The position numbers and the translations under genes were made by a program. Positions 19,561 to 62,217 of a stretch of DNA of 64,000 nt are shown here, one piece after another; within the stretch, counting starts at the first letter, position 1; every line of letters begins with the position of its first letter. Origin of the DNA: Seongchinamella unica (GTDB lineage Bacteria > Pseudomonadota > Gammaproteobacteria > Pseudomonadales > Halieaceae); contig NZ_SMSE01000003.1 of the NCBI RefSeq assembly GCF_004354085.1, forward strand, positions 62,001-126,000, given 5' to 3'. The notes under the pieces were generated by a model, which saw only the letters and a program-made list of their open reading frames with translations, was not told the origin of the DNA and ran no database searches.

Positions 19561-22500
19561 TTAGAAACTGAAGGTCGCCTTCCCCACCACACTCACTTCC
19601 GGCAAATAGGGTGACAGCGAAGGCTGCTCGCTGAATGCCATGAAGGTGTCGTCCTGGTAATCAAATGTTTCATCAGTGGCATTCTTCACCGTGAGACTGA
19701 GAATGCCCCGGCGGGCGCGCATGCGGTAGCCGGCAGTGAAGTCCAGTACGGTGAAGTCGCTACTACCCTGTTTGAGGAAGGACCCCGTGGGTCGCTCTAC
19801 GTCCTGATCCACATAGGTCACCCGGGCGCCGCCGAAAAGCCCGCTGGCATGGAAGTAACCCAGTGATAGTGGCAAGTGCAGGGTTTCCACATCCATGGGC
19901 TGGTCGAAGCGCTGGTCCTGGTTGCCCTCGTACTGGTCGTAAATCGCTTCCACGCCGAGTGAAATCCGGTCGCTGGGTGTCCAGTAGAAATAACCGCCGT
20001 AAGAGGATTCCTCCCGGTCCCGATACTCCCCGTCACCCGTGCGCAGGTTAGCCACCAGTATTTCAAAATCCCGTTCCCAGGCCTCCAACCCCAGCTTGAT
20101 CGAAGTCGATACATTCCAGTCCATACCCAGGCCGTAGCCCTCTGTTTTGGTGCCATTGGCATCGTCGAAGAACTGGTTGAAACCGGCGATCTGGGTGGGT
20201 TCGATGGTGCGATTGCCCGCCAGTGGCGCTTTGATGGTCTCATAGTAAGCTCCCCGTAACTGCAGCCGGTCAGTGAGGTCCCAGCGCAGGCCCAGCTTGG
20301 GGTTCCACTGGTCTTCGGACACTTTCCCCTGCTCATACTCCTGGTAACTCACGCCAATGGTCCAGTTGAGATTTGCGGGCAGCTCGATGTTCGAGTAGGC
20401 GTAGCCCACCACGTTCTCCAGGTCCTGCTGAAAGCTGAGCTCATCGCCAAATTCCAGATTTACCGGCGGACCAACCTGCTGCAGCACCCGTGCGGCCAAA
20501 TCCCAGTCGTTATCCGAATACGAAATACCGGTGACCAGGTTGAACCACTCATCCATGAGCTGGTACTGGATTTCGCCGAGGACTGTTTCCTGCTCCAGAT
20601 GACCGCTCTCTTCAATGCTGATCAGCACGGGCAGGCCGGGAATGGTGATATCGTCTGTAAACTCCTGCTTGGACGTGGTGTCTTCTTCAGTCTCGCTGTA
20701 AATCAGTGACAGCAACAGCGATGATTCCGGTGACAAATTCAACCGGCTACCCAGACGCAGGCTGTCGTCCTCGAATTCCCGCCGGCGGCTGGCGTCGAAG
20801 TCATCAGGGTCAAAGTTCATACTGATATCGCCGTGTTCGGTTTCCCGATGACGCAGTTCCATCTGCAGGTTTACGCGGCTGTTCACGGCATACTGCAGGA
20901 AGCCGTTGTACACTTCGTTATCCAGATCGTTGTTGCCGCGAAAGCCATCGGTATCGTAGACATAGGCGCCAGCGCTGTAGGACAGGCGGTCGTATACCCC
21001 GGACACCACCGCCTCCCCGCTATAGGTATCGTTATTGCCAGCCAGGGCGGAAACATTGAAAACGGTCTCATTTCGCTGGAACAGTGGCGTGAACTCATTG
21101 AACCCGGCAGCCGCCGGACCTCCCAGGGTGACAACATTCAGGTGGGTCTCTGCGATGCTCGGTTGCACGGGGTTGATATTCACTTCCTGGGTCAGCTGTG
21201 ATTGCAGCAGTTCACTGACCCGGGAAATTTCGCGGCGGTGCAGGCCCTGATAGGTATCTGAAAGAAAACGATGTCCCGACGCATTTCCCGGGTCAACGGT
21301 CAGGAATCGAGTGGCTTCCTGCAAAGCCACTCGCTGGAATCCCAGGTCGCTGTAGACCCTGGCCAGGCTGGTACCCCTTGCTGCCCGGTCCTTGTCGAGC
21401 AGGAGACGACTTCGATACACCGCCCGATTGTCGTTGCGAATGATGGATTCCTCAATCTCCTGCAATGCCGGAATGGGCTGGTTGCGAGTCTGCCTGGCGA
21501 TACCGGCATAGAGGAAAGGAGTGGGATCCATGTTGTCCAGTTCCTTGGCAATGTCCCATTGCTGGATGTCCAGAGGAGGCCGCTTCTCCTCAAAATAGGC
21601 CTTGCCCAGATAGGATCGCAGCAGCGCGCGATTGGCATCCAACGCCACCGCCGCCTCCAGATCGGCCCGACCTGCGCGCAGATCGCCACTGCTGATTTTC
21701 GCCAGGCCCAGGCCCATATGCGCCAAGGGGTCGGCCGAGGATAACTTCAGAGCTGTCTCGAAGGCTGCTATTGCTTCGTCGTTACGGAATTCCGCAAGTG
21801 CGGTGAAGCCTCTGACCAGCTGTGTTCGGGACTGCTCCGGATCGATGGCAATCGCCCGGTCGGCAGTGGTCATGGCTGCCGAGCGGTCACCCTGCATGAG
21901 TTGCAATTCGGCCAGTCTCGCCAGCGCGAGCGCATTGTCCGGATCGGCATTGACCGCCGCCTGCGCGGCGTTGAGCGCAGCCTGAATGTCGAACATTGCC
22001 TGCAGGGCATACGAATGTGCGATATGTGCCGAGGCGCTATCGGGGCTGAGATCTACTGCGCGCTGGGCGTCGGCAAGTCCCTGGGCCGTGTCATTATTGA
22101 CCACCGCCATCACTGACCGCAGGGCATAGGCGTCACCGCGGGATGCATCGGCACCCAGTGCGTTGTCGGTTGCTTCCGAGGCTTCCCCGATCCTACCAAC
22201 AGACAGCAGCGCCGCGGCCGAGAGTAAGTGATAATCGGCCCCACGCTCTGCAACGGGTATGTTAGCCAGAGCGTCAAAGGTACAGGCAGTATCGCCTGCG
22301 TCGACACAGGCGCGCACATTCCCCATACCGGGAGCAGCATCGTCCCCCAAAACCAACACAGGCGGATAATACAGGGACCATTGCACGGCATCGCGAGGAT
22401 TCACCAGGGTTCGCGGTTGCGGTGGGCTACCCTGCGAGGCGGCTGCCGTTTCGCCGCCAGCAAGGGTCAACTGGCCGTGGTTGTTGGCAGCCACCACCGT

Positions 22501-23016
22501 TCCCTCCAGAACAGTGATCGAGCCTTCGCCTTCGCCCGCCCGGATAACAAACTCGGTGCCCTCGATCGACCCGTTGATATAAGGTGTATTGACAACCAGC
22601 TTGCGAGGCTGGCGGCTGAACGACTGTATGGCTCCAGCGACCATGTCGAGAATGGACGGTTCCTCCGCTTCAGGAACAATATTGACCAGGCGCAAGGTAG
22701 TGTTTGCGTCGATGCGCAGGACCGCATCGGTGATCAGGGCAACCGCGGCGCGGCTACGGCTGCCGACCCGAATCGTGTCGCCTTCACACAGGCCTTCCCT
22801 GAGCGCGGCCTCCGACCAAACGGTTGAGTCGCTGGGTTGAATGGACACCGCTCCCTCGAGGGAAACCACCTCCCCCACTTGATTTTCGCAGGCAGACAGA
22901 GAGGCGGAAGACCAGCTCACGCCGAGTACTGCAAGCACTGGCAGCAGCAGCCACAGGACACGGTGAGCGGATCGCTGACTCTGCACCACACAGTAATCTC
23001 GATTAAAATCAGTCAT
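19561..23016 (-). CDS. FecR-TPR-outer-membrane beta-barrel fusion protein
   Basis: 1151 residues combining three modules. An N-terminal hydrophobic signal/anchor (about 20-45) precedes a FecR domain (about 45-200, with VGSRSRAAVALITDAVLRID and NTPYINGSIEGTEFVIRAG). A long TPR series (about 230-600) has repeated A-x-ALNLDP-like helices such as ALAADPDNA-type units. A C-terminal region of about 500 residues reads like a TonB-receptor-type beta-barrel and ends in Phe (VGKATFSF). FecR domains normally sense or relay signals in the periplasm. No plug domain or TonB box is evident, so transport by the barrel is uncertain. It diverges from the HD and cyclase genes. Confidence 0.85.
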   Translation of the reverse strand: MTDFNRDYCVVQSQRSAHRVLWLLLPVLAVLGVSWSSASLSACENQVGEVVSLEGAVSIQPSDSTVWSEAALREGLCEGDTIRVGSRSRAAVALITDAVLRIDANTTLRLVNIVPEAEEPSILDMVAGAIQSFSRQPRKLVVNTPYINGSIEGTEFVIRAGEGEGSITVLEGTVVAANNHGQLTLAGGETAAASQGSPPQPRTLVNPRDAVQWSLYYPPVLVLGDDAAPGMGNVRACVDAGDTACTFDALANIPVAERGADYHLLSAAALLSVGRIGEASEATDNALGADASRGDAYALRSVMAVVNNDTAQGLADAQRAVDLSPDSASAHIAHSYALQAMFDIQAALNAAQAAVNADPDNALALARLAELQLMQGDRSAAMTTADRAIAIDPEQSRTQLVRGFTALAEFRNDEAIAAFETALKLSSADPLAHMGLGLAKISSGDLRAGRADLEAAVALDANRALLRSYLGKAYFEEKRPPLDIQQWDIAKELDNMDPTPFLYAGIARQTRNQPIPALQEIEESIIRNDNRAVYRSRLLLDKDRAARGTSLARVYSDLGFQRVALQEATRFLTVDPGNASGHRFLSDTYQGLHRREISRVSELLQSQLTQEVNINPVQPSIAETHLNVVTLGGPAAAGFNEFTPLFQRNETVFNVSALAGNNDTYSGEAVVSGVYDRLSYSAGAYVYDTDGFRGNNDLDNEVYNGFLQYAVNSRVNLQMELRHRETEHGDISMNFDPDDFDASRRREFEDDSLRLGSRLNLSPESSLLLSLIYSETEEDTTSKQEFTDDITIPGLPVLISIEESGHLEQETVLGEIQYQLMDEWFNLVTGISYSDNDWDLAARVLQQVGPPVNLEFGDELSFQQDLENVVGYAYSNIELPANLNWTIGVSYQEYEQGKVSEDQWNPKLGLRWDLTDRLQLRGAYYETIKAPLAGNRTIEPTQIAGFNQFFDDANGTKTEGYGLGMDWNVSTSIKLGLEAWERDFEILVANLRTGDGEYRDREESSYGGYFYWTPSDRISLGVEAIYDQYEGNQDQRFDQPMDVETLHLPLSLGYFHASGLFGGARVTYVDQDVERPTGSFLKQGSSDFTVLDFTAGYRMRARRGILSLTVKNATDETFDYQDDTFMAFSEQPSLSPYLPEVSVVGKATFSF

Positions 23017-23519
23017 GGTCTATCTCGCCAATTCCCTTTGAAGAAGCATTTTTTGAAGGCGCAAATAACCACCCCGGGGCGAACACCCATCCCTATAACG
23101 ATTAGTAAAGTTAGAACAGACTGTCAATGAAACAGTCTTGTTGCGCCTGTTGCTATTGATTACTGGTGACCATGGCATGTGCAGATGGGCGTTACTTTGC
23201 CTCAGGAATTGACGCTGGCTTGAAAATTCCTTGCACAAAAAACAGGCTGATTATTAATAGGTTAAACCGGACAGCTTGAGCTGTTTCCAGCATTAAACTT
23301 GCTGAACTATTTGAAAACCCATGTCAGTTCTGTACATTTTTCAATCAGCTTTATAATTAAATATTCTAAGGGATCATGGCTTTCATCCTCCCGCTTTGAG
23401 GCTGATGAACCTGGCGAACCATCGTTCTTTTTGCGACAACCACGCATGCTGCAGCTCCTCGCGTGTCCTATACTCAAGCAAATCCACAAGGTTCACCTGA
23501 CTGACGGGGTTTCCGCTCT
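23017..23519. promoter_or_regulatory. Divergent intergenic region, AT-richer than surroundings
   Basis: 503 bases between the FecR fusion gene and the HD gene. No convincing gene is seen. It contains the 14-bp palindrome ACAGCTTGAGCTGT (23271-23284) and several AT-rich stretches suitable for divergent promoters. Confidence 0.4.
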
Positions 23520-24173
23520 ATGGAATTGAATCTCGCGGTACGGTTTGCTGCACTCTGGAAGCGCTGCACCGACACAGACAGTGACAGGGCAACGGTGTGG
23601 GAAGCCCTCTACCAACGCTATACCGAGGATCACCGGTGCTACCATACGCTTGAACATGTTGCCCATTGCCTGCTGGAGTTCGACAGAGCCGCTGGCAGAA
23701 TCGGGGAAAACGATGCAGTGGAATTGGCTATCTGGTTCCACGACATCATTTACGAACCGGACTGCAAGGACAACGAGGCGGCCAGTGCAGATTTTTTCCG
23801 CACCGTTGCCCGGCCCGTGATGGACGCAAATCTTGTCGAGCTGGTATGTCAGTTGATTCTCGCCACTGTCCACGCCGACGAACCCCTGTGTGGAGCACCG
23901 GCCTACATGGTGGATATCGATCTGTCTTCATTCGGACTGCCCTGGGATGACTTTCTCAGAGACAGCAACAATCTGCGCCGTGAGGGTAGCGCAATCCCGG
24001 ACGCTGAGTTCTATCGTAACAAGGCGGGATTTCTGAACGCATTGCTGCAACGCCGATACATTTTCAATACCGAGTTCTTCCGCGAGGCCCACGAACGGAA
24101 AGCAAGGCAGAATATCGAGCGCTATCTGGCGATGATCCATGATTGGGGTTTTGACATCAAATCACAGGCTTAA
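23520..24173 (+). CDS. HD-superfamily predicted metal-dependent phosphohydrolase
   Basis: 217 residues like the COG4339 family. The metal-binding pattern is visible: YHTLEH near residue 42, WFHDIIY near 75 (the HD pair) and MVDIDLSSFG near 130 (final Asp). Such proteins hydrolyse phosphate esters or nucleotides in the cytoplasm, but the substrate of this branch is not known. It lies 48 bases upstream of the CHASE2 cyclase on the same strand. A role in cyclic-nucleotide or nucleotide turnover is only a guess from that position. Confidence 0.85.
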   Translation: MELNLAVRFAALWKRCTDTDSDRATVWEALYQRYTEDHRCYHTLEHVAHCLLEFDRAAGRIGENDAVELAIWFHDIIYEPDCKDNEAASADFFRTVARPVMDANLVELVCQLILATVHADEPLCGAPAYMVDIDLSSFGLPWDDFLRDSNNLRREGSAIPDAEFYRNKAGFLNALLQRRYIFNTEFFREAHERKARQNIERYLAMIHDWGFDIKSQA

Positions 24174-24221: not shown

Positions 24222-26399
24222 ATGACACGGTTGCTTAAAGCCATTGTGCTGGGTCTGGCCACGGCCTTGCTGGGCGTACTCCTCTCGTTTTCCCCTTATG
24301 GGACAGGGATAGAACGCGGTTTGGGGCTTCCCTGGCTATTCGGCATACGCGGACCGGTACCCAGCCCTGCTCACGTGGCTGTCATCGGCATTAACAGCGA
24401 GACCGGCGCAGAGCTCAACCTGCCATCGCTTCCCAGAGACTGGCCACGGGGTATTCACGCGACGCTTATCGAGCGACTGGTGGCATTGAATGCCGCGGTC
24501 ATTGTCTTTGATATTTTCTTTTCCCAGGAAAAGGAAACGGAAGAAGACGCGAAACTGGTCGCCGCGGTTAGCGCTGCAAAACGGGTAATCCTGTTTGAGC
24601 GCCTGACCGGAAAAACTGCACCGGTGGTGGATGTGGACGGAAACCAGGTAGGTGAAATTTGGTCCGAAACGCTCGTCCCACCCTTCGACGCCCTGGCTTC
24701 TGCCGCCACTGCCCTGGGCGTTTTTCCCCTCCCCAAGATTGACGCCGCAGTACACGAGTTCTGGACGTTCAAGGATTCAGTCAGCTATGAACCGAGTATG
24801 CCTGCCGCGGCAATGCAATTGTTTGTTCAGCGACTGCAACCAGACTGGTCCGAAGCCATGCGCCTGCGTTTACGCAAGGACACGGGTAACCCTGATACGC
24901 TCGGCGCCCAGATGCGGGCCCTGCGTAACCTGTACCTGCAGTCGCCCAAGGCTGCGCACCACGACGGCGGCGGAAGCGCCTTTATCGCTGCGCTGGAGGC
25001 GCTGTACAGCGGTGATGAGCACCGCTATCTCAATTTCTATGGCCCCCCGGGCACTATTCGCAACCTGAGCTACCAGGAGGTAGTAAACTCACCGGAAAGT
25101 ATCGGCCGGACACTGCAAGATACCGTTGTCTTTGTTGGCTACTCTGATCTCTACGACCCCGGTCAACCCGATCGATTCTACACAGTTTACACACGTGATG
25201 ATGGTGTAGACCTGGCCGGTGTAGAGATCGCAGCGACTGCCTTTGCCAACCTGCTGCACGACGAGGCGCTAAAGCCACTGTCCACCGCCTTCACCCTTGT
25301 AGTGCTCACCACGGTTAGTCTGCTATTTGCCATAGCGGCCTACATGCTACCGGCTGCATTGGGTGTTGTCGTGAGCCTGGTGCTGTGGATCGGATATGCC
25401 GCATTAGCACAATGGCAGTTTGGACAAAGCCACTGGCTACCCTTAGCTGTGCCTTTGCTGGTACAGGCACCACTTGCCGTTTTCCTTGGCGTATTCGGTC
25501 AGTATCGTTTTGAAAGACAACGCGGGCAGCGCATATCGGAAGCTATTAATTATTACCTGCCCGAACATATAGCGAAGGAGTTTGCTGCCGGTCGCATTGA
25601 TCCCGATTCTGCCAACGATGTCAGTTATGGTACTTGTCTCGCTACCGATATGGCGGGTTTTTCGACAATTGCGCAGGACATGAACCCGCGTGAACTCGCT
25701 GTTCTTCTTAATGAATACTTCGAGGTATTGGCCAACGCGCTCAACGCGCATAAGGTTGACGTCACAGAGTTTCGCGCCGATGCCATCATGTGTGCGTGGC
25801 TGGGGGATGAATCCGGGGAAACGCCTCGCAGGAGGGCAATACAGGCTGCCCTGGAAGCACGTCGTGTTATTGCCGGTTTCGGAAAACAGTATGGTGCTTC
25901 CATTGCAGGCCTGCGCGTCGGGCTCGAATCTGGCTGGTTCTATGTGGGGCATGCTGGCGGAGGTGGCCATTTCGTCTACAGTATTGTAGGGGACTGTGCG
26001 AACACAGCTTCGCGTCTCGAGGGACTGAATAAATATCTCGGAACGCAGATTATCGCTTCTGCCGAGGTCGTCAACGACCTCGACGGGTTCTTGTGCAGAC
26101 CCCTGGGATTGTTCCAGTTAAAAGGCAAGGACAAGGCCACAGACGTGTATGAAATCCTCGGGGAGCTCGGCGAGGATGCCGGTGAAACTGACTGGCTGCC
26201 CACGTTCGGAGCAGCACTCACCGCGTTCCAGGAGAATCGCCTGGAGACCGCGCGGGACGCTTTCAAGGCAGTTTTGTCAGTGCGCCCAGACGATGGGCCG
26301 TCACGATTTTTTCTCGACCAGTGCGGGCAGCTGTTGCAGGAAGACGCGCCGGTCGAAAGCATGAGCGTGCCAAGAATCATAAGCATGGACAGCAAGTGA
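24222..26399 (+). CDS. CHASE2-domain class III nucleotide cyclase, guanylate-cyclase-like
   Basis: 725 residues. TM1 (about 5-24) is followed by a periplasmic CHASE2 sensor domain (HVAVIGINSETGAEL, VIVFDIFFSQ), then three membrane segments (about 352-425) and a cytoplasmic class III cyclase domain (about 465-650). Metal-binding Asp residues are D476 (ATDMAGFS) and D520 (FRADAIM), and the transition-state residues are N594 and R598 (NTASRL). The purine-selecting positions are E516 (in place of the Lys of adenylate cyclases) and S587 (in place of Asp/Thr). This is the guanylate-cyclase-like combination. The stop overlaps the GTG start of the SulP gene, so output and target are co-translated. 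Confidence 0.9.
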   Translation: MTRLLKAIVLGLATALLGVLLSFSPYGTGIERGLGLPWLFGIRGPVPSPAHVAVIGINSETGAELNLPSLPRDWPRGIHATLIERLVALNAAVIVFDIFFSQEKETEEDAKLVAAVSAAKRVILFERLTGKTAPVVDVDGNQVGEIWSETLVPPFDALASAATALGVFPLPKIDAAVHEFWTFKDSVSYEPSMPAAAMQLFVQRLQPDWSEAMRLRLRKDTGNPDTLGAQMRALRNLYLQSPKAAHHDGGGSAFIAALEALYSGDEHRYLNFYGPPGTIRNLSYQEVVNSPESIGRTLQDTVVFVGYSDLYDPGQPDRFYTVYTRDDGVDLAGVEIAATAFANLLHDEALKPLSTAFTLVVLTTVSLLFAIAAYMLPAALGVVVSLVLWIGYAALAQWQFGQSHWLPLAVPLLVQAPLAVFLGVFGQYRFERQRGQRISEAINYYLPEHIAKEFAAGRIDPDSANDVSYGTCLATDMAGFSTIAQDMNPRELAVLLNEYFEVLANALNAHKVDVTEFRADAIMCAWLGDESGETPRRRAIQAALEARRVIAGFGKQYGASIAGLRVGLESGWFYVGHAGGGGHFVYSIVGDCANTASRLEGLNKYLGTQIIASAEVVNDLDGFLCRPLGLFQLKGKDKATDVYEILGELGEDAGETDWLPTFGAALTAFQENRLETARDAFKAVLSVRPDDGPSRFFLDQCGQLLQEDAPVESMSVPRIISMDSK

Positions 26400-28609
26400 G
26401 CATCTTCACCAAATTCAGCCCGGAGTTCTTATTATCCAGTTTGCTGGCCGGCATCATTGCAGGACTGGTGGCGCTGGTATCCTGTGTAAGCTTCGCCGCG
26501 CTGATCTTCCATGGCCCGCTTACCCCCTACCTGTCGACGGGCATTTCGATTGCCATCAGCACGGCAGTGATCGGTGGTTCCGTACTCACGCTATTCAGCA
26601 CTTGCCGACCAGTGGTGGCCATACCGGATGACGATACTGCGCCGGTTCTGGCGCTGATGGTCACGTTACTGATAGCCCTGTTCCCCGCGGGTACTCCACT
26701 GGAAGTGCAGTTCGTCACCGCGTTTGCCGCACTTGCGCTATCAGCGCTCACCACAGGAGTCGCGTTGACTTTGTTGGGCTTTTTTCGCCTGGGTTCACTG
26801 GTCAGGTTTCTCCCTTACTCGGTGATGGGTGGCTACTTTGCCGGAGTCGGATTGCTTCTAATCCAGGGAGCCTTGCGAGTAGTAACAGATTTACCCCTGT
26901 TGACTCCTGCCAGTTTCGTGCAACTTTTTTCCCCGAACCAGTTCCCCCTTTGGCTGCCTGCCTTTGCATCTGCCATCGCCATTCGGCTCGGCATAGGGTA
27001 CCTCAACAAGTCGATCGCTATGCCCGCAATCCTCGCCATACTGATAGCCGCCTACTATGCGGGAAATGGATTGCTGGGCCATGGTCCGCATCAGCTGATG
27101 ACGAATGGCCTACTCATGGGCCCCTTCCCTGAGACGGAGACGGTCTTCGTTCGGCCAATACTTCTCCAGCGTTTGCCCGAGGTCAACTGGGGATTGGTCT
27201 TTGGAAGCGCGGATGGAATTGCCACCATCATCATGCTGAGTAGCGTCTCCCTGATGTTGACTGCCAGCGGACTCTCGCTGGTGCAGCGGGAGAATATCAA
27301 TATTAACAGGGAGCTTGAAGTGGCCGGCGTCGCCAACGCTGTGAGTGGTTTGAGCGGTGGCTTGCTGACACTCCCATCCATGACCCTGTCTACCCTGGCA
27401 CACACAGTAGGCGCGCCAAAGACTCGGCTTGTAGGTCTGGTAGTCGCCGCTTTTTGCGCCCTGATTATGATGTTTTTCATGGGAGCCATAGCCTGGTTAC
27501 CGAAAGCAGTGGTTGGCGGTTTACTGCTGTTTTTGGGTTGGTCATTTCTCGAACGATGGCTGATTGAGGCCCGACTGCAACTGCCTCTGCTGGAATACGG
27601 CGTGGTGCTGGTGATAGTTGCAGTTGTCGCGTTCGCGGGTTTCCTAGAGGGTGTTTTTTTCGGCTTGATCTGCGCGATCATGCTGTTTGTAGTCAATTAC
27701 AGCCGCATTAATGTCGTTCGCTACGCAATGACCGGCGAACAGCGTCGAAGTAATGTTGACCGTAACAGTAAACAAAGCCACTACCTCCAGGAAGCGGGGG
27801 GTCAGTCCTTTATGCTCAAATTGCAGGGATACCTGTTTTTTGGGACGGCAGCAGCCCTGGGCACGCGCATTGAGCAACGCCTTGAAGACAAGTCCCTGCC
27901 AAAATTGCGATTTGTCGCAATGGACTTTGCCCAGGTTACCGGCATGGATTCTTCCGCGGCTTTGTCGTTCATGAAACTTGCCCAGCAAGCTGCCAGATCA
28001 GATTTCTTCCTCATTCTCACTGGGTTGTCAGCGGAATTGGAGGAACGGCTGAAGAGTAGCTGGTTCGAGGGTGAAACGACCAGCTATATGCAATTATTGC
28101 CTGACCTCGATCGCGGGGTAGAGTGGATTGAAGAACGGATTCTGAAAGAAGCCGGAATGGAGGAGGAGTGCGAGAGCATTTTGACGCAACTTTCGCGTGT
28201 TCTCCCCATGGAGTCGGATCTGACGGTCTTGCTGAAATATCTTGAAGAACGCCAGGTCAATGCGGGCGACGTGCTTGCCGAACAGGGCAAATCTTCAGAC
28301 GAGCTTTTTTTGCTGGAGTCCTGTACTGCGTCGGTGTACCTTGGGACCGCTTCAGATAGGCGCCACCGGATCCGTCGAGCCGGTTCGGGCACCGTATTTG
28401 GTGAAGTGGGCTTTTATCTCGGCTCTCCCCGTACAGCGACCGTGGTTGTCGATAGCAACGGCAAACTGTTTGTTCTTAATCAGGATAAGATGGCTCTTCT
28501 GGAACAGGAACACCCGCAAATTGCAGCGGCGGTCCATAAATTCATGATTCGGGTCATTACCCAGCGCCTACAGCTGACGACTGCGACCCTGCAGGCTGTG
28601 CTGACTTGA
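26396..28609 (+). CDS. SulP anion transporter with STAS and cyclic-nucleotide-binding domains
   Basis: 737 residues from a GTG at 26396, which forms a 4-base overlap (GTGA) with the cyclase stop. The N-terminal SulP membrane domain spans about 12-415 (LLAGIIAGLVALVSCVSFAALIF ... SGLSGGLLTLPSMTLSTLAHTVGAP). A STAS domain spans about 468-570 (LRFVAMDFAQVTGMDSSAA), and a cNMP-binding domain about 605-730 with the cassette FGEVGFYLGSPRTATV (R679, T680). SulP proteins move sulfate, bicarbonate or carboxylates; the substrate here is unknown. Thr after the cassette Arg resembles cGMP-preferring sites of protein kinase G. The gene pair implies direct control of transport by the neighbouring cyclase. 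Confidence 0.9.
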   Translation: MSIFTKFSPEFLLSSLLAGIIAGLVALVSCVSFAALIFHGPLTPYLSTGISIAISTAVIGGSVLTLFSTCRPVVAIPDDDTAPVLALMVTLLIALFPAGTPLEVQFVTAFAALALSALTTGVALTLLGFFRLGSLVRFLPYSVMGGYFAGVGLLLIQGALRVVTDLPLLTPASFVQLFSPNQFPLWLPAFASAIAIRLGIGYLNKSIAMPAILAILIAAYYAGNGLLGHGPHQLMTNGLLMGPFPETETVFVRPILLQRLPEVNWGLVFGSADGIATIIMLSSVSLMLTASGLSLVQRENININRELEVAGVANAVSGLSGGLLTLPSMTLSTLAHTVGAPKTRLVGLVVAAFCALIMMFFMGAIAWLPKAVVGGLLLFLGWSFLERWLIEARLQLPLLEYGVVLVIVAVVAFAGFLEGVFFGLICAIMLFVVNYSRINVVRYAMTGEQRRSNVDRNSKQSHYLQEAGGQSFMLKLQGYLFFGTAAALGTRIEQRLEDKSLPKLRFVAMDFAQVTGMDSSAALSFMKLAQQAARSDFFLILTGLSAELEERLKSSWFEGETTSYMQLLPDLDRGVEWIEERILKEAGMEEECESILTQLSRVLPMESDLTVLLKYLEERQVNAGDVLAEQGKSSDELFLLESCTASVYLGTASDRRHRIRRAGSGTVFGEVGFYLGSPRTATVVVDSNGKLFVLNQDKMALLEQEHPQIAAAVHKFMIRVITQRLQLTTATLQAVLT

Positions 28610-60577: not shown

Positions 60578-60644
60578 GAGATTCCCCGGTTGTTATTGTC
60601 GACTTGAGTGATTGTGAATTTTTTCACAGTTCACGCCTGGTCCA

Positions 60645-60957: not shown

Positions 60958-62217
60958 GTGAGTACCGTGAAAAGGTCACTGGAAAATAACATCAAGGCAA
61001 TTTACCTGCTGGGATTCTTCACCGGCTTCATGGTGGTGGTGCCCGTTTTCGTGCCGCTGCTGCAGGGCTACGGCCTGTCCATGAGCGAGGTGATGCAGAC
61101 CCAGGCGCTATTCGCGCTGACCATCGCCCTGTGCGAGGTGCCCTCCGGCTATATCGCCGACCTGTGGGGCAGGCGCAACGCCATACTGGTGGGTTCCGGC
61201 CTGAACGCGCTGGGCTTCTTCTCACTGCTCTGGGCTGACAGCTTTGTCGATTTCCTGATTTACGAGTTTATTCTCGGGATCGGCTTCAGCCTGATTTCCG
61301 GCGCCGACCTGGCACTGCTGTACGACACCGAAGTCTACCTGCAGGAGCGGGGTCTGCGCGGGGGTGCCGGCGCCAGCAAGTCCCTCAGCCGGCTGATCGC
61401 CGTAGAAGCGGCGGCCTCGGGCGCCGCCGGTATCGCCGCCAGCCTGTTGCTCTTATGGTCGATGGACAGCGTGGTGATGCTACAGGCCTTCACCGGCTTT
61501 GCACCGCTGTTACTGGCCGTACTGCTGGTTGAAGCGCCTCGCCCACCGGGTGCCGGCGATGCAGCTGACGGCCACGGGGAAAACGCCCGCAGGATCGTCG
61601 ATTTGCTGCTGTTCGGCAAACCGGTGGTGTTCTGGACCGCATTCGCCATCGCGGTATTCGGTCTGCTGGCTGTGTACGTGTTCTGGATCTACCAGAAGTA
61701 CTGGGAGATGCAGGGTATCCCCCTGGCCTCCTTCGGCTACATCTGGGCGGCGTTTGCCCTCACTGTCAGCCTGTCGGCCCGCTACAGCGAGTCGCTGGAA
61801 CGCCTGCTGGGCTATCGCCAGGTACTGGTGCTGATCGCGGTGCTGCCCATTGCCGGACTGCTGGGCATGGCCTTCGCTGCCGGCTGGCTGGGGGTGATCT
61901 TCGGCTTTGCCATACAGGTCTCTCGCGGGCTTTCCATGAGCCTGTTTTACGAGGCCCTCAATCGGCGTGTGCCCGGTGAATTCCGCGCCACCGTCAATTC
62001 GCTGGTAAGCCTGGGTGTGCGTTCCACGTTTATTGTCACCGGCCCATTGCTGGGAATGGCGCTGGACAGCCATGGCGTGCAGCCGACCCTGCTGGGACTG
62101 GCTGCGATCTTCGCTCCGTTGATGGGCCTGGTACTGGTGCCACTGGTGCTGAAGATCCGTCGGGAGCAGGCCGAGACTTCGCCGCAAGCGTCGGCCCCGT
62201 CTGCCGCCGTCCTGTAA
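60958..62217 (+). CDS. Major facilitator superfamily transporter
   Basis: 419 residues with about twelve hydrophobic segments. The MFS loop 2-3 signature is GYIADLWGRRNAILVGSG near residue 62. TM segments include AIYLLGFFTGFMVVVPVFVP and FSLISGADLALLYDTEVYLQ. The first start is GTG at 60958; a GTG at 60967 is a close alternative. It precedes the lacI-nagA pair, which hints at sugar import, but the substrate cannot be assigned. The distinctive motif LLYDTEVYL places it among little-studied MFS proteins. Confidence 0.88.
   Translation: MSTVKRSLENNIKAIYLLGFFTGFMVVVPVFVPLLQGYGLSMSEVMQTQALFALTIALCEVPSGYIADLWGRRNAILVGSGLNALGFFSLLWADSFVDFLIYEFILGIGFSLISGADLALLYDTEVYLQERGLRGGAGASKSLSRLIAVEAAASGAAGIAASLLLLWSMDSVVMLQAFTGFAPLLLAVLLVEAPRPPGAGDAADGHGENARRIVDLLLFGKPVVFWTAFAIAVFGLLAVYVFWIYQKYWEMQGIPLASFGYIWAAFALTVSLSARYSESLERLLGYRQVLVLIAVLPIAGLLGMAFAAGWLGVIFGFAIQVSRGLSMSLFYEALNRRVPGEFRATVNSLVSLGVRSTFIVTGPLLGMALDSHGVQPTLLGLAAIFAPLMGLVLVPLVLKIRREQAETSPQASAPSAAVL

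What the first reader, a model, noticed from the sequence alone, without database searches (positions are those of the whole stretch)
24222..28609. Self-contained cyclic-nucleotide module: CHASE2 cyclase translationally coupled to a cNMP-binding SulP transporter
The cyclase stop and transporter GTG start overlap (GTGA, 26396-26399). The transporter carries its own cyclic-nucleotide-binding domain after STAS. Signal production and signal target are therefore encoded as one unit, with a periplasmic CHASE2 sensor as input and an anion transporter as output. Class III cyclases can respond to bicarbonate and SulP proteins can carry it, so a feedback loop is conceivable, but that is speculation.
Basis: partly seen in the sequence, partly recalled or inferred. 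Interest (0 to 1): 0.8.

Follow-up and report, generated by a model that had tools for sequence, protein, structure and literature searches.

The report
Cyclase paired with nucleotide-binding anion transporter
A bacterium encodes, in one gene cluster, an enzyme that makes a cyclic-nucleotide signal, a membrane anion transporter that carries a receiver domain for such signals, and a possible signal-destroying enzyme; relatives repeat the pairing with swapped signal makers, which suggests on-site control of the transporter, still untested in the laboratory.

Summary
In detail: a CHASE2 class III cyclase (24222-26399) overlaps by GTGA a SulP-STAS-cNBD transporter (26396-28609). The pairing is not chance in the transporter's closer kin: of 88 loci, 11 have a class III cyclase within 500 bp (84.6 kb of flank) and 6 farther out (1.23 Mb). 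Of 69 cNBD-less SulP genes none has one within 2 kb. A broader Pseudomonadota sample is weaker: 2 of 75 within 1 kb, not significant alone. In the window's family all nine close transporters found have an adjacent cyclase, but of three kinds; the tree rejects grouping the window's cyclase with the Halioglobus-type ones (AU p 8.5e-6). The transporter stays while the cyclase changes. The unit is larger than first read: an HD hydrolase (fold nearest phosphodiesterases, weakly), a Zn-ribbon protein, and a FecR-TPR-barrel protein whose relatives follow window-type cyclases elsewhere. Best reading: a local cyclic-nucleotide circuit acting on an SLC26-type carrier; ligand, substrate and gating are unshown. 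A bicarbonate loop is unsupported here. My paper searches showed no report of this pairing.

The parts
24222..26399 (+). CHASE2 sensor plus class III nucleotide cyclase, 725 aa
   Evidence: Pfam CHASE2 2e-27 and Guanylate_cyc 2.8e-10; D476, D520, N594, R598 present; E516 and S587 at the two purine-site positions (roles recalled)
26396..28609 (+). SulP-STAS-cNBD transporter, 737 aa, GTG start overlapping the cyclase stop
   Evidence: Pfam Sulfate_transp, STAS, cNMP_binding; AF2 mean pLDDT 82.1, pTM 0.67; best PDB folds are SLC26 proteins, among them prestin, SLC26A3, SLC26Dg and BicA; cassette with E670 and R679
23520..24173 (+). HD-superfamily hydrolase, 217 aa, candidate cyclic-nucleotide phosphodiesterase
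   Evidence: No Pfam or PDB sequence match; H42, H46, H74, D75, D132, D134 invariant in 9 sequences; AF2 pLDDT 93; 48 of the 50 PDB folds shown are phosphodiesterases, but Foldseek E is 0.013 at best; relatives in 7 family cassettes and in L061
28635..29015 (+). Zn-ribbon (TFIIB-type) protein, 126 aa, 25 bp downstream of the transporter
   Evidence: Pfam PF13453 3.3e-18; next to the transporter in 7 family cassettes, 48-49% identical in the five compared
19561..23016 (-). FecR-TPR-TonB-type beta-barrel protein, 1151 aa, divergent; probable upstream partner of the cyclase
   Evidence: Pfam FecR, TPR, TonB_dep_Rec_b-barrel; relatives of its FecR-TPR part directly follow 8 of 8 window-type cyclases in another family (L280-L287; FecR and TPR confirmed by Pfam in L281)
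23017..23519 (.). Divergent intergenic region, presumably holding both promoters
   Evidence: Gene orientation; one weak sigma-70-like match at 23311, no more than in shuffles

Best explanation
The cluster is a local second-messenger circuit for one membrane carrier. A signal from outside the inner membrane, probably passed by the FecR-TPR-barrel protein, reaches the CHASE2 domain and changes cyclase activity. The cyclic nucleotide made binds the C-terminal cNBD of the SulP-STAS-cNBD protein and, through the STAS domain, opens or closes an SLC26-type anion carrier. The HD protein may hydrolyse the nucleotide and reset the system. Shown: the genes, their domains, complete catalytic and nucleotide-binding letters, recurrent adjacency beyond chance in the transporter's closer kin, and a change of cyclase while the transporter cluster is kept. 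Inferred: nucleotide binding, gating, direction of regulation, the roles of HD, FecR and Zn-ribbon, and the transported anion.
For: Adjacency: in 88 SulP-cNBD loci the nearest cyclase is within 500 bp in 11 (84.6 kb of flank) and farther in 6 (1.23 Mb), binomial p 7e-10 (L060 dropped; all 17 are above the Pfam cut-off). Control: 0 of 69 cNBD-less SulP genes within 2 kb. On a 172-row transporter tree (144 rows scored) adjacency within 1 kb changes at least 8 times. Family: 9 of 9 close transporters have an adjacent cyclase. Swap: the transporter is 62-64% identical to the two Halioglobus ones compared but the cyclases only 25-27%; holding the cyclases together is rejected, p 8.5e-6; the same-genus genome G158 has yet another cyclase (DZR-cyclase-AAA-TPR) tail to tail at 5 bp. 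CHASE2 cyclases also lie near SulP-cNBD genes in L061, L039, L128 and L088. HD fold nearest phosphodiesterases.
Against: Most SulP-cNBD genes have no cyclase within 1 kb as far as the flanks reach (77 of 88 and 73 of 75), so the domain works without a neighbour. In the broader sample 2 of 75 against 0 of 69 is not significant (p 0.50). The cassette Arg is absent in 31 of 88 and 4 of 75, and adjacency is not shown to go with the Arg (p 0.20 at 1 kb, L060 still counted; too few independent pairs). Two adjacent cyclases (L088, L090) lack the usual Asn-Arg pair. The genome holds other cyclases and cNBDs. The HD Foldseek E-values are weak and the PDB is rich in phosphodiesterases. Long branches make the exact place of the window cyclase in the tree unsure.
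Confidence: 0.5

Rival explanations
1. Shared pool: the cyclase feeds the cell-wide cyclic-nucleotide pool read by CRP-like regulators, and the SulP cNBD merely reads the same pool. The pairing gives co-expression, not a private circuit.
For: Eleven cNBD matches and three class III cyclases in the genome; a perfect CRP-type palindrome at 60613-60628; another cyclase of this genome lies about 1.2 kb from a small cNBD gene that is CRP-like by size.
Against: Repeated changes of adjacency on the tree and change of the cyclase with the transporter cluster kept suggest that proximity matters.
Confidence: 0.27
2. The cNBD is a structural or vestigial domain that binds no nucleotide; the genes are together for another reason, for example a shared response to envelope stress.
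For: 31 of 88 set A members lack the cassette Arg; five more distant relatives have lost the whole cassette; adjacency not shown to track the Arg.
Against: The window, G158 and the two Halioglobus transporters read (L043, L044) have complete cassettes.
Confidence: 0.12
3. Bicarbonate feedback: the carrier moves bicarbonate, which stimulates the cyclase.
For: Six Halioglobus-type cassette cyclases carry Thr at the position recalled as predicting bicarbonate response (PMC3383692 passages mention such a threonine). Neighbour cyclases of one Polyangium (L098) and one Chloroflexi genome (L091) match human soluble adenylyl cyclase best in the PDB. BicA is among the folds.
Against: The window cyclase has Ser there. 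BicA score 70 against cut-off 880. No carbonic anhydrase was looked for.
Confidence: 0.08
4. Chance or neutral neighbourhood.
For: Set B alone is not significant.
Against: Set A proximity p 7e-10, and 5.6e-6 with rows collapsed by hand to 7 near of 13 lineages; at least 8 changes on the tree.
Confidence: 0.03

Closest known systems
Campylobacterota CHASE2 adenylate cyclase cluster with phosphodiesterase, FecR outer-membrane protein and TPR protein (mBio 2022, PMC9239204, passages read)
   Same: CHASE2 cyclase, FecR-type protein with TPR, and a (here only putative) phosphodiesterase kept together
   Different: The passages read name no transporter or cNBD effector in that cluster; here a SulP-STAS-cNBD gene overlaps the cyclase, and the hydrolase is an HD protein
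SLC9C1 / sNHE, sperm Na+/H+ exchanger with a CNBD (PMC6052114, start of abstract in a search listing; its link to soluble adenylyl cyclase is recalled)
   Same: A solute carrier with a cyclic-nucleotide-binding domain, working with a cyclase
   Different: Other carrier family, extra voltage sensor, eukaryotic; here an SLC26/SulP fold with STAS
SulP/SLC26 transporters (BicA, DauA, SLC26Dg)
   Same: SulP and STAS domains and SLC26 fold
   Different: Below the cut-offs of the sulP, BicA and DauA models; added cNBD; substrate unknown
Soluble adenylyl cyclase ADCY10
   Same: Neighbour cyclases in Polyangium (L098) and one Chloroflexi genome (L091) match it best in the PDB, in two stretches, with AAA and TPR parts
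   Different: The window cyclase is a membrane CHASE2 type

Membership tests
Class III nucleotide cyclase | PF00211 domain above cut-off | tested here: met
   40.5 bits against 21.9
Class III nucleotide cyclase | Two metal Asp and Asn/Arg transition-state pair | tested here: met
   D476, D520, N594, R598 (roles recalled)
Class III nucleotide cyclase | Makes cAMP or cGMP | not testable with these tools
   E516 resembles the guanylate-cyclase letter, but S587 fits neither usual pair (recalled rule); its eight nearest relatives have Asp and Arg at these two positions
CHASE2 receptors | PF05226 domain N-terminal to the output domain | tested here: met
   96.8 bits against 26.3
SulP/SLC26 | PF00916 plus STAS, SLC26 fold | tested here: met
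   82.3 bits against 23.2 and 41.6 against 22.6; fold matches
BicA bicarbonate transporter | Equivalog score NF050096 | tested here: not met
   70.3 bits against 880
cNMP-binding domain | PF00027 above cut-off and complete phosphate-binding cassette | tested here: met
   50.4 against 27.5 bits; E670 and R679
cNMP-binding domain | Binds cAMP or cGMP | not testable with these tools
   Needs a binding assay
Class I cyclic-nucleotide phosphodiesterase (HD protein) | Fold and H/H/HD/D metal site | tested here: inconclusive
   48 of 50 folds shown are phosphodiesterases but E 0.013 at best, rmsd mostly 5-8; H42, H46, H74, D75, D132, D134 invariant in 9; no sequence match in the PDB
Campylobacterota CHASE2-PDE-FecR-TPR cluster | CHASE2 cyclase with FecR, TPR and PDE neighbours | tested here: inconclusive
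   FecR-TPR and CHASE2 cyclase met; the PDE is only inferred

The most novel reading that the evidence does not exclude
A new type of regulated anion carrier: a bacterial SLC26/SulP transporter directly gated by a cyclic nucleotide through its own cNBD, wired to a private, exchangeable cyclase and a private HD phosphodiesterase, so that envelope signals reach ion transport without transcription. Different lineages plug in CHASE2 cyclases, kinase-CHASE2 cyclases or soluble-adenylyl-cyclase-like enzymes. In the window the messenger might even be cGMP (Glu516 in the cyclase, RTA in the cNBD; both rules recalled), though Halioglobus-type cassettes with the same RTA have a cAMP-type Lys cyclase, which speaks against it.
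Probability: 0.4. Interest if true: 0.78.

Novelty: new variant of a known kind. Interest (0 to 1): 0.6.

Why it matters
Apart from transcription factors, known targets of cAMP or cGMP in bacteria are few (recalled). A recurrent cyclase plus SulP-STAS-cNBD pairing would give a genetically defined circuit in which a cyclic nucleotide acts on a carrier directly, and a simple bacterial model for how nucleotides tune SLC26 transporters, which matter in human hearing, gut and sperm (recalled). The change of cyclase shows how evolution can rewire input while keeping output.

Tried and rejected
Cassette Arg as a marker of cyclase pairing: a hint in the first 13 sequences, not upheld in the larger set. 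cGMP specificity: Glu516 and RTA pointed to it, but Halioglobus-type cyclases have Lys with the same RTA. Viral carriers: one pattern scan of viral contigs with the transporter confirmed no relative. A CRP-type site near the cluster: only matches with 2 mismatches, fewer in the window than in shuffles. Promoter and terminator scans gave nothing above shuffles. L060 was first counted as a cyclase neighbour and dropped after Pfam found only a cNBD in it. Eight order-level regions seen early (L029-L036) are in no count: L029-L031, L033 and L034 have a C-terminus without the cassette, L032 yielded no transporter frame by my closed-ORF rule, and L035-L036 have short SulP genes; BLAST with the window cyclase showed no cyclase in any of the eight.

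Rows dropped or doubled, and limits: L196 had no full-length frame. Plasmid hit H7 was not fetched. Set A is the best 80 of at least 549 relatives plus the window, G158 and 6 of 7 plasmid records, so it leans towards the window's kind. The 69 control genes were picked by hand from the rows (the listing there is cut), nearly all with frames under 660 aa, from the 65 genomes searched (the set B hosts and G158); one, G398:C122, has a 709-aa frame; none of the 69 reached the cNBD part of my transporter model, but Pfam was not run on them. Cyclases were sought with a model built from the same loci, at E 1e-5, in sets and controls alike; strongly diverged ones could be missed. Some flanks are cut by contig ends. 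The 7-of-13 lineage collapse was done by hand.

Full report
Check. The cyclase (24222-26399, 725 aa) has CHASE2 and a class III catalytic domain; the transporter (GTG 26396-28609, 737 aa) has SulP, STAS and cNBD domains, all above Pfam cut-offs. The stop of the first lies inside the GTGA that starts the second. The letters needed for catalysis and for holding the phosphate of a cyclic nucleotide are present (roles recalled).

How common is the pairing? In the window's order sample 8 of 293 genomes (own included) have a relative of the transporter at E 1e-20; in a phylum sample 65 of 398 match the family profile at E 1e-60. I read the flanks of 88 loci closest to the window's kind (set A: window, G158, 6 of 7 plasmid records, the best 80 of at least 549 in genome contigs) and of 75 loci from the phylum sample (set B, 76 fetched, L196 dropped). 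In set A the nearest class III cyclase lies within 500 bp in 11 loci (84.6 kb of flank), and farther in 6 (1.23 Mb) after dropping L060; binomial p 7e-10, and 5.6e-6 with related rows collapsed by hand to 7 near of 13. All these 17, and the 4 of set B, are above the Pfam cut-off. In set B 2 of 75 have one within 1 kb (529 and 658 bp), one at 1.2 kb and one at 4.8 kb. Of 69 SulP genes without cNBD, taken from the set B genomes and G158, none has one within 2 kb and one has one at 2.8 kb. Set A against control at 1 kb: 11 of 88 against 0 of 69, p 0.0025; sets A and B together 13 of 163, p 0.012; set B alone 2 of 75, p 0.50. Set A and the control are not matched by phylum, so the distance gradient inside set A is the better evidence.

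Lineages. On a quick tree of 172 transporters, 144 scored, adjacency within 1 kb changes at least 8 times; the count cannot tell gain from loss. The neighbours differ in build: CHASE2 cyclases (window; Halioglobus L043, L044; L128 at 529 bp), kinase-CHASE2-cyclase (L088), kinase-cyclase-AAA-TPR (L090), SAM-cyclase-AAA-TPR (L042), zinc-ribbon-cyclase-AAA-TPR (G158), a protein with a cyclase as its only Pfam domain (L151), and cyclases with AAA and TPR parts and two cyclase stretches by my model in Polyangium (L096, L098, L099) and a Chloroflexi genome (L091); L098 and L091 match human soluble adenylyl cyclase best among solved structures. CHASE2 cyclases also lie a little farther off in L061 (1.8 kb, with the HD gene between) and L039 (2.1 kb). 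Two neighbours, L088 and L090, lack the usual Asn-Arg pair and may be inactive.

The family. Of 140 genomes 13 (own included) carry a SulP-cNBD at E 1e-60. Four are distant, with no cyclase in the flanks read. The other nine, including the window and G158, all have an adjacent cyclase. In seven the order is cyclase, transporter, Zn-ribbon, then the HD gene on the opposite strand; CHASE2 is seen in six of these, the seventh cyclase (L200) being cut by the contig end. In the window the HD gene stands first and on the same strand. G158 has neither HD nor Zn-ribbon relative in the 18 kb read.

Change of cyclase. The window transporter is 62-64% identical to the two Halioglobus ones compared, the Zn-ribbon 48-49%, the HD protein 44-48%, but the cyclase only 25-27%. 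In a tree of 31 cyclases the window's groups with eight from another family of the order (100/100); holding it with six cassette cyclases is rejected, AU p 8.5e-6 (long branches are present, so the exact place is less sure than the exclusion). Those eight genomes bear handles given and are not among its eight with a transporter match. All eight of those cyclases are directly followed by a gene related to the FecR-TPR part of window 19561-23016 (28-37% identity; Pfam confirms FecR and TPR in L281). So the window cyclase probably came with, or kept, its FecR partner. A FecR gene also lies two genes upstream of the cyclase in L044. G158, of the same genus, has a third kind of cyclase.

Mechanism. 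I infer signal, CHASE2, cyclic nucleotide, cNBD, STAS, carrier. The AlphaFold model (mean pLDDT 82.1, pTM 0.67) is consistent with carrier, STAS and cNBD parts, with SLC26 structures as best folds. The HD protein (pLDDT 93.0) finds phosphodiesterases in 48 of the 50 PDB folds shown, with weak E-values (0.013 at best) and high rmsd; its H, H, HD and D letters are invariant in 9 sequences. A role as the off-switch fits a published cluster of CHASE2 cyclase, phosphodiesterase, FecR and TPR genes in Campylobacterota (PMC9239204, passages), which names no transporter in the passages I read.

What is not shown. No binding, transport or enzyme activity is known to me. The cassette Arg is missing in 31 of 88 set A and 4 of 75 set B transporters, and cyclase adjacency is not shown to follow it. 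The messenger is open: the window cyclase has Glu516 and Ser587, the six Halioglobus-type ones Lys and Thr. A Thr is said to predict bicarbonate response in such cyclases (PMC3383692, passages; the position is recalled), so bicarbonate is conceivable for the relatives but not supported here. The substrate is open too, since the sulP, BicA and DauA models all score below cut-off.

Literature. Nine searches of open PubMed Central papers gave listings, two of them cut, in which I saw no report of a cyclase paired with a SulP-cNBD transporter; I read passages of two papers. Most subscription papers and all bioRxiv preprints are missing from the library, so absence is not proven.

Noticed in passing
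window 60613-60628: A perfect CRP-type palindrome TGTGAATTTTTTCACA upstream of a gene starting at 60958 that reads like a membrane transporter (by eye); the only match without mismatch in the window.
   Followed up: no
L061:12575-14407: A glutaminase-STAS-cNBD protein directly downstream of a SulP-STAS-cNBD gene: the STAS-cNBD tail appears on an enzyme too.
   Followed up: partly
L060:7772-9049: A 425-aa protein near a SulP-cNBD gene with a cyclase-like N-terminus (own model only) and a Pfam cNBD.
   Followed up: partly
L096, L098, L099 upstream of the SulP-cNBD gene; L091:5223-9275: Cyclases with AAA and TPR parts upstream of SulP-cNBD in Polyangium and one Chloroflexi genome; L098 and L091 match human soluble adenylyl cyclase best in the PDB.
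   Followed up: partly
L039, L040: Rhizobial plasmid SulP-cNBD genes lie near FecR genes and near C39 peptidase/ABC or NHLP bacteriocin export genes.
   Followed up: no
L029-L031, L033, L034: SulP relatives whose C-terminal domain has lost the nucleotide-binding cassette.
   Followed up: partly
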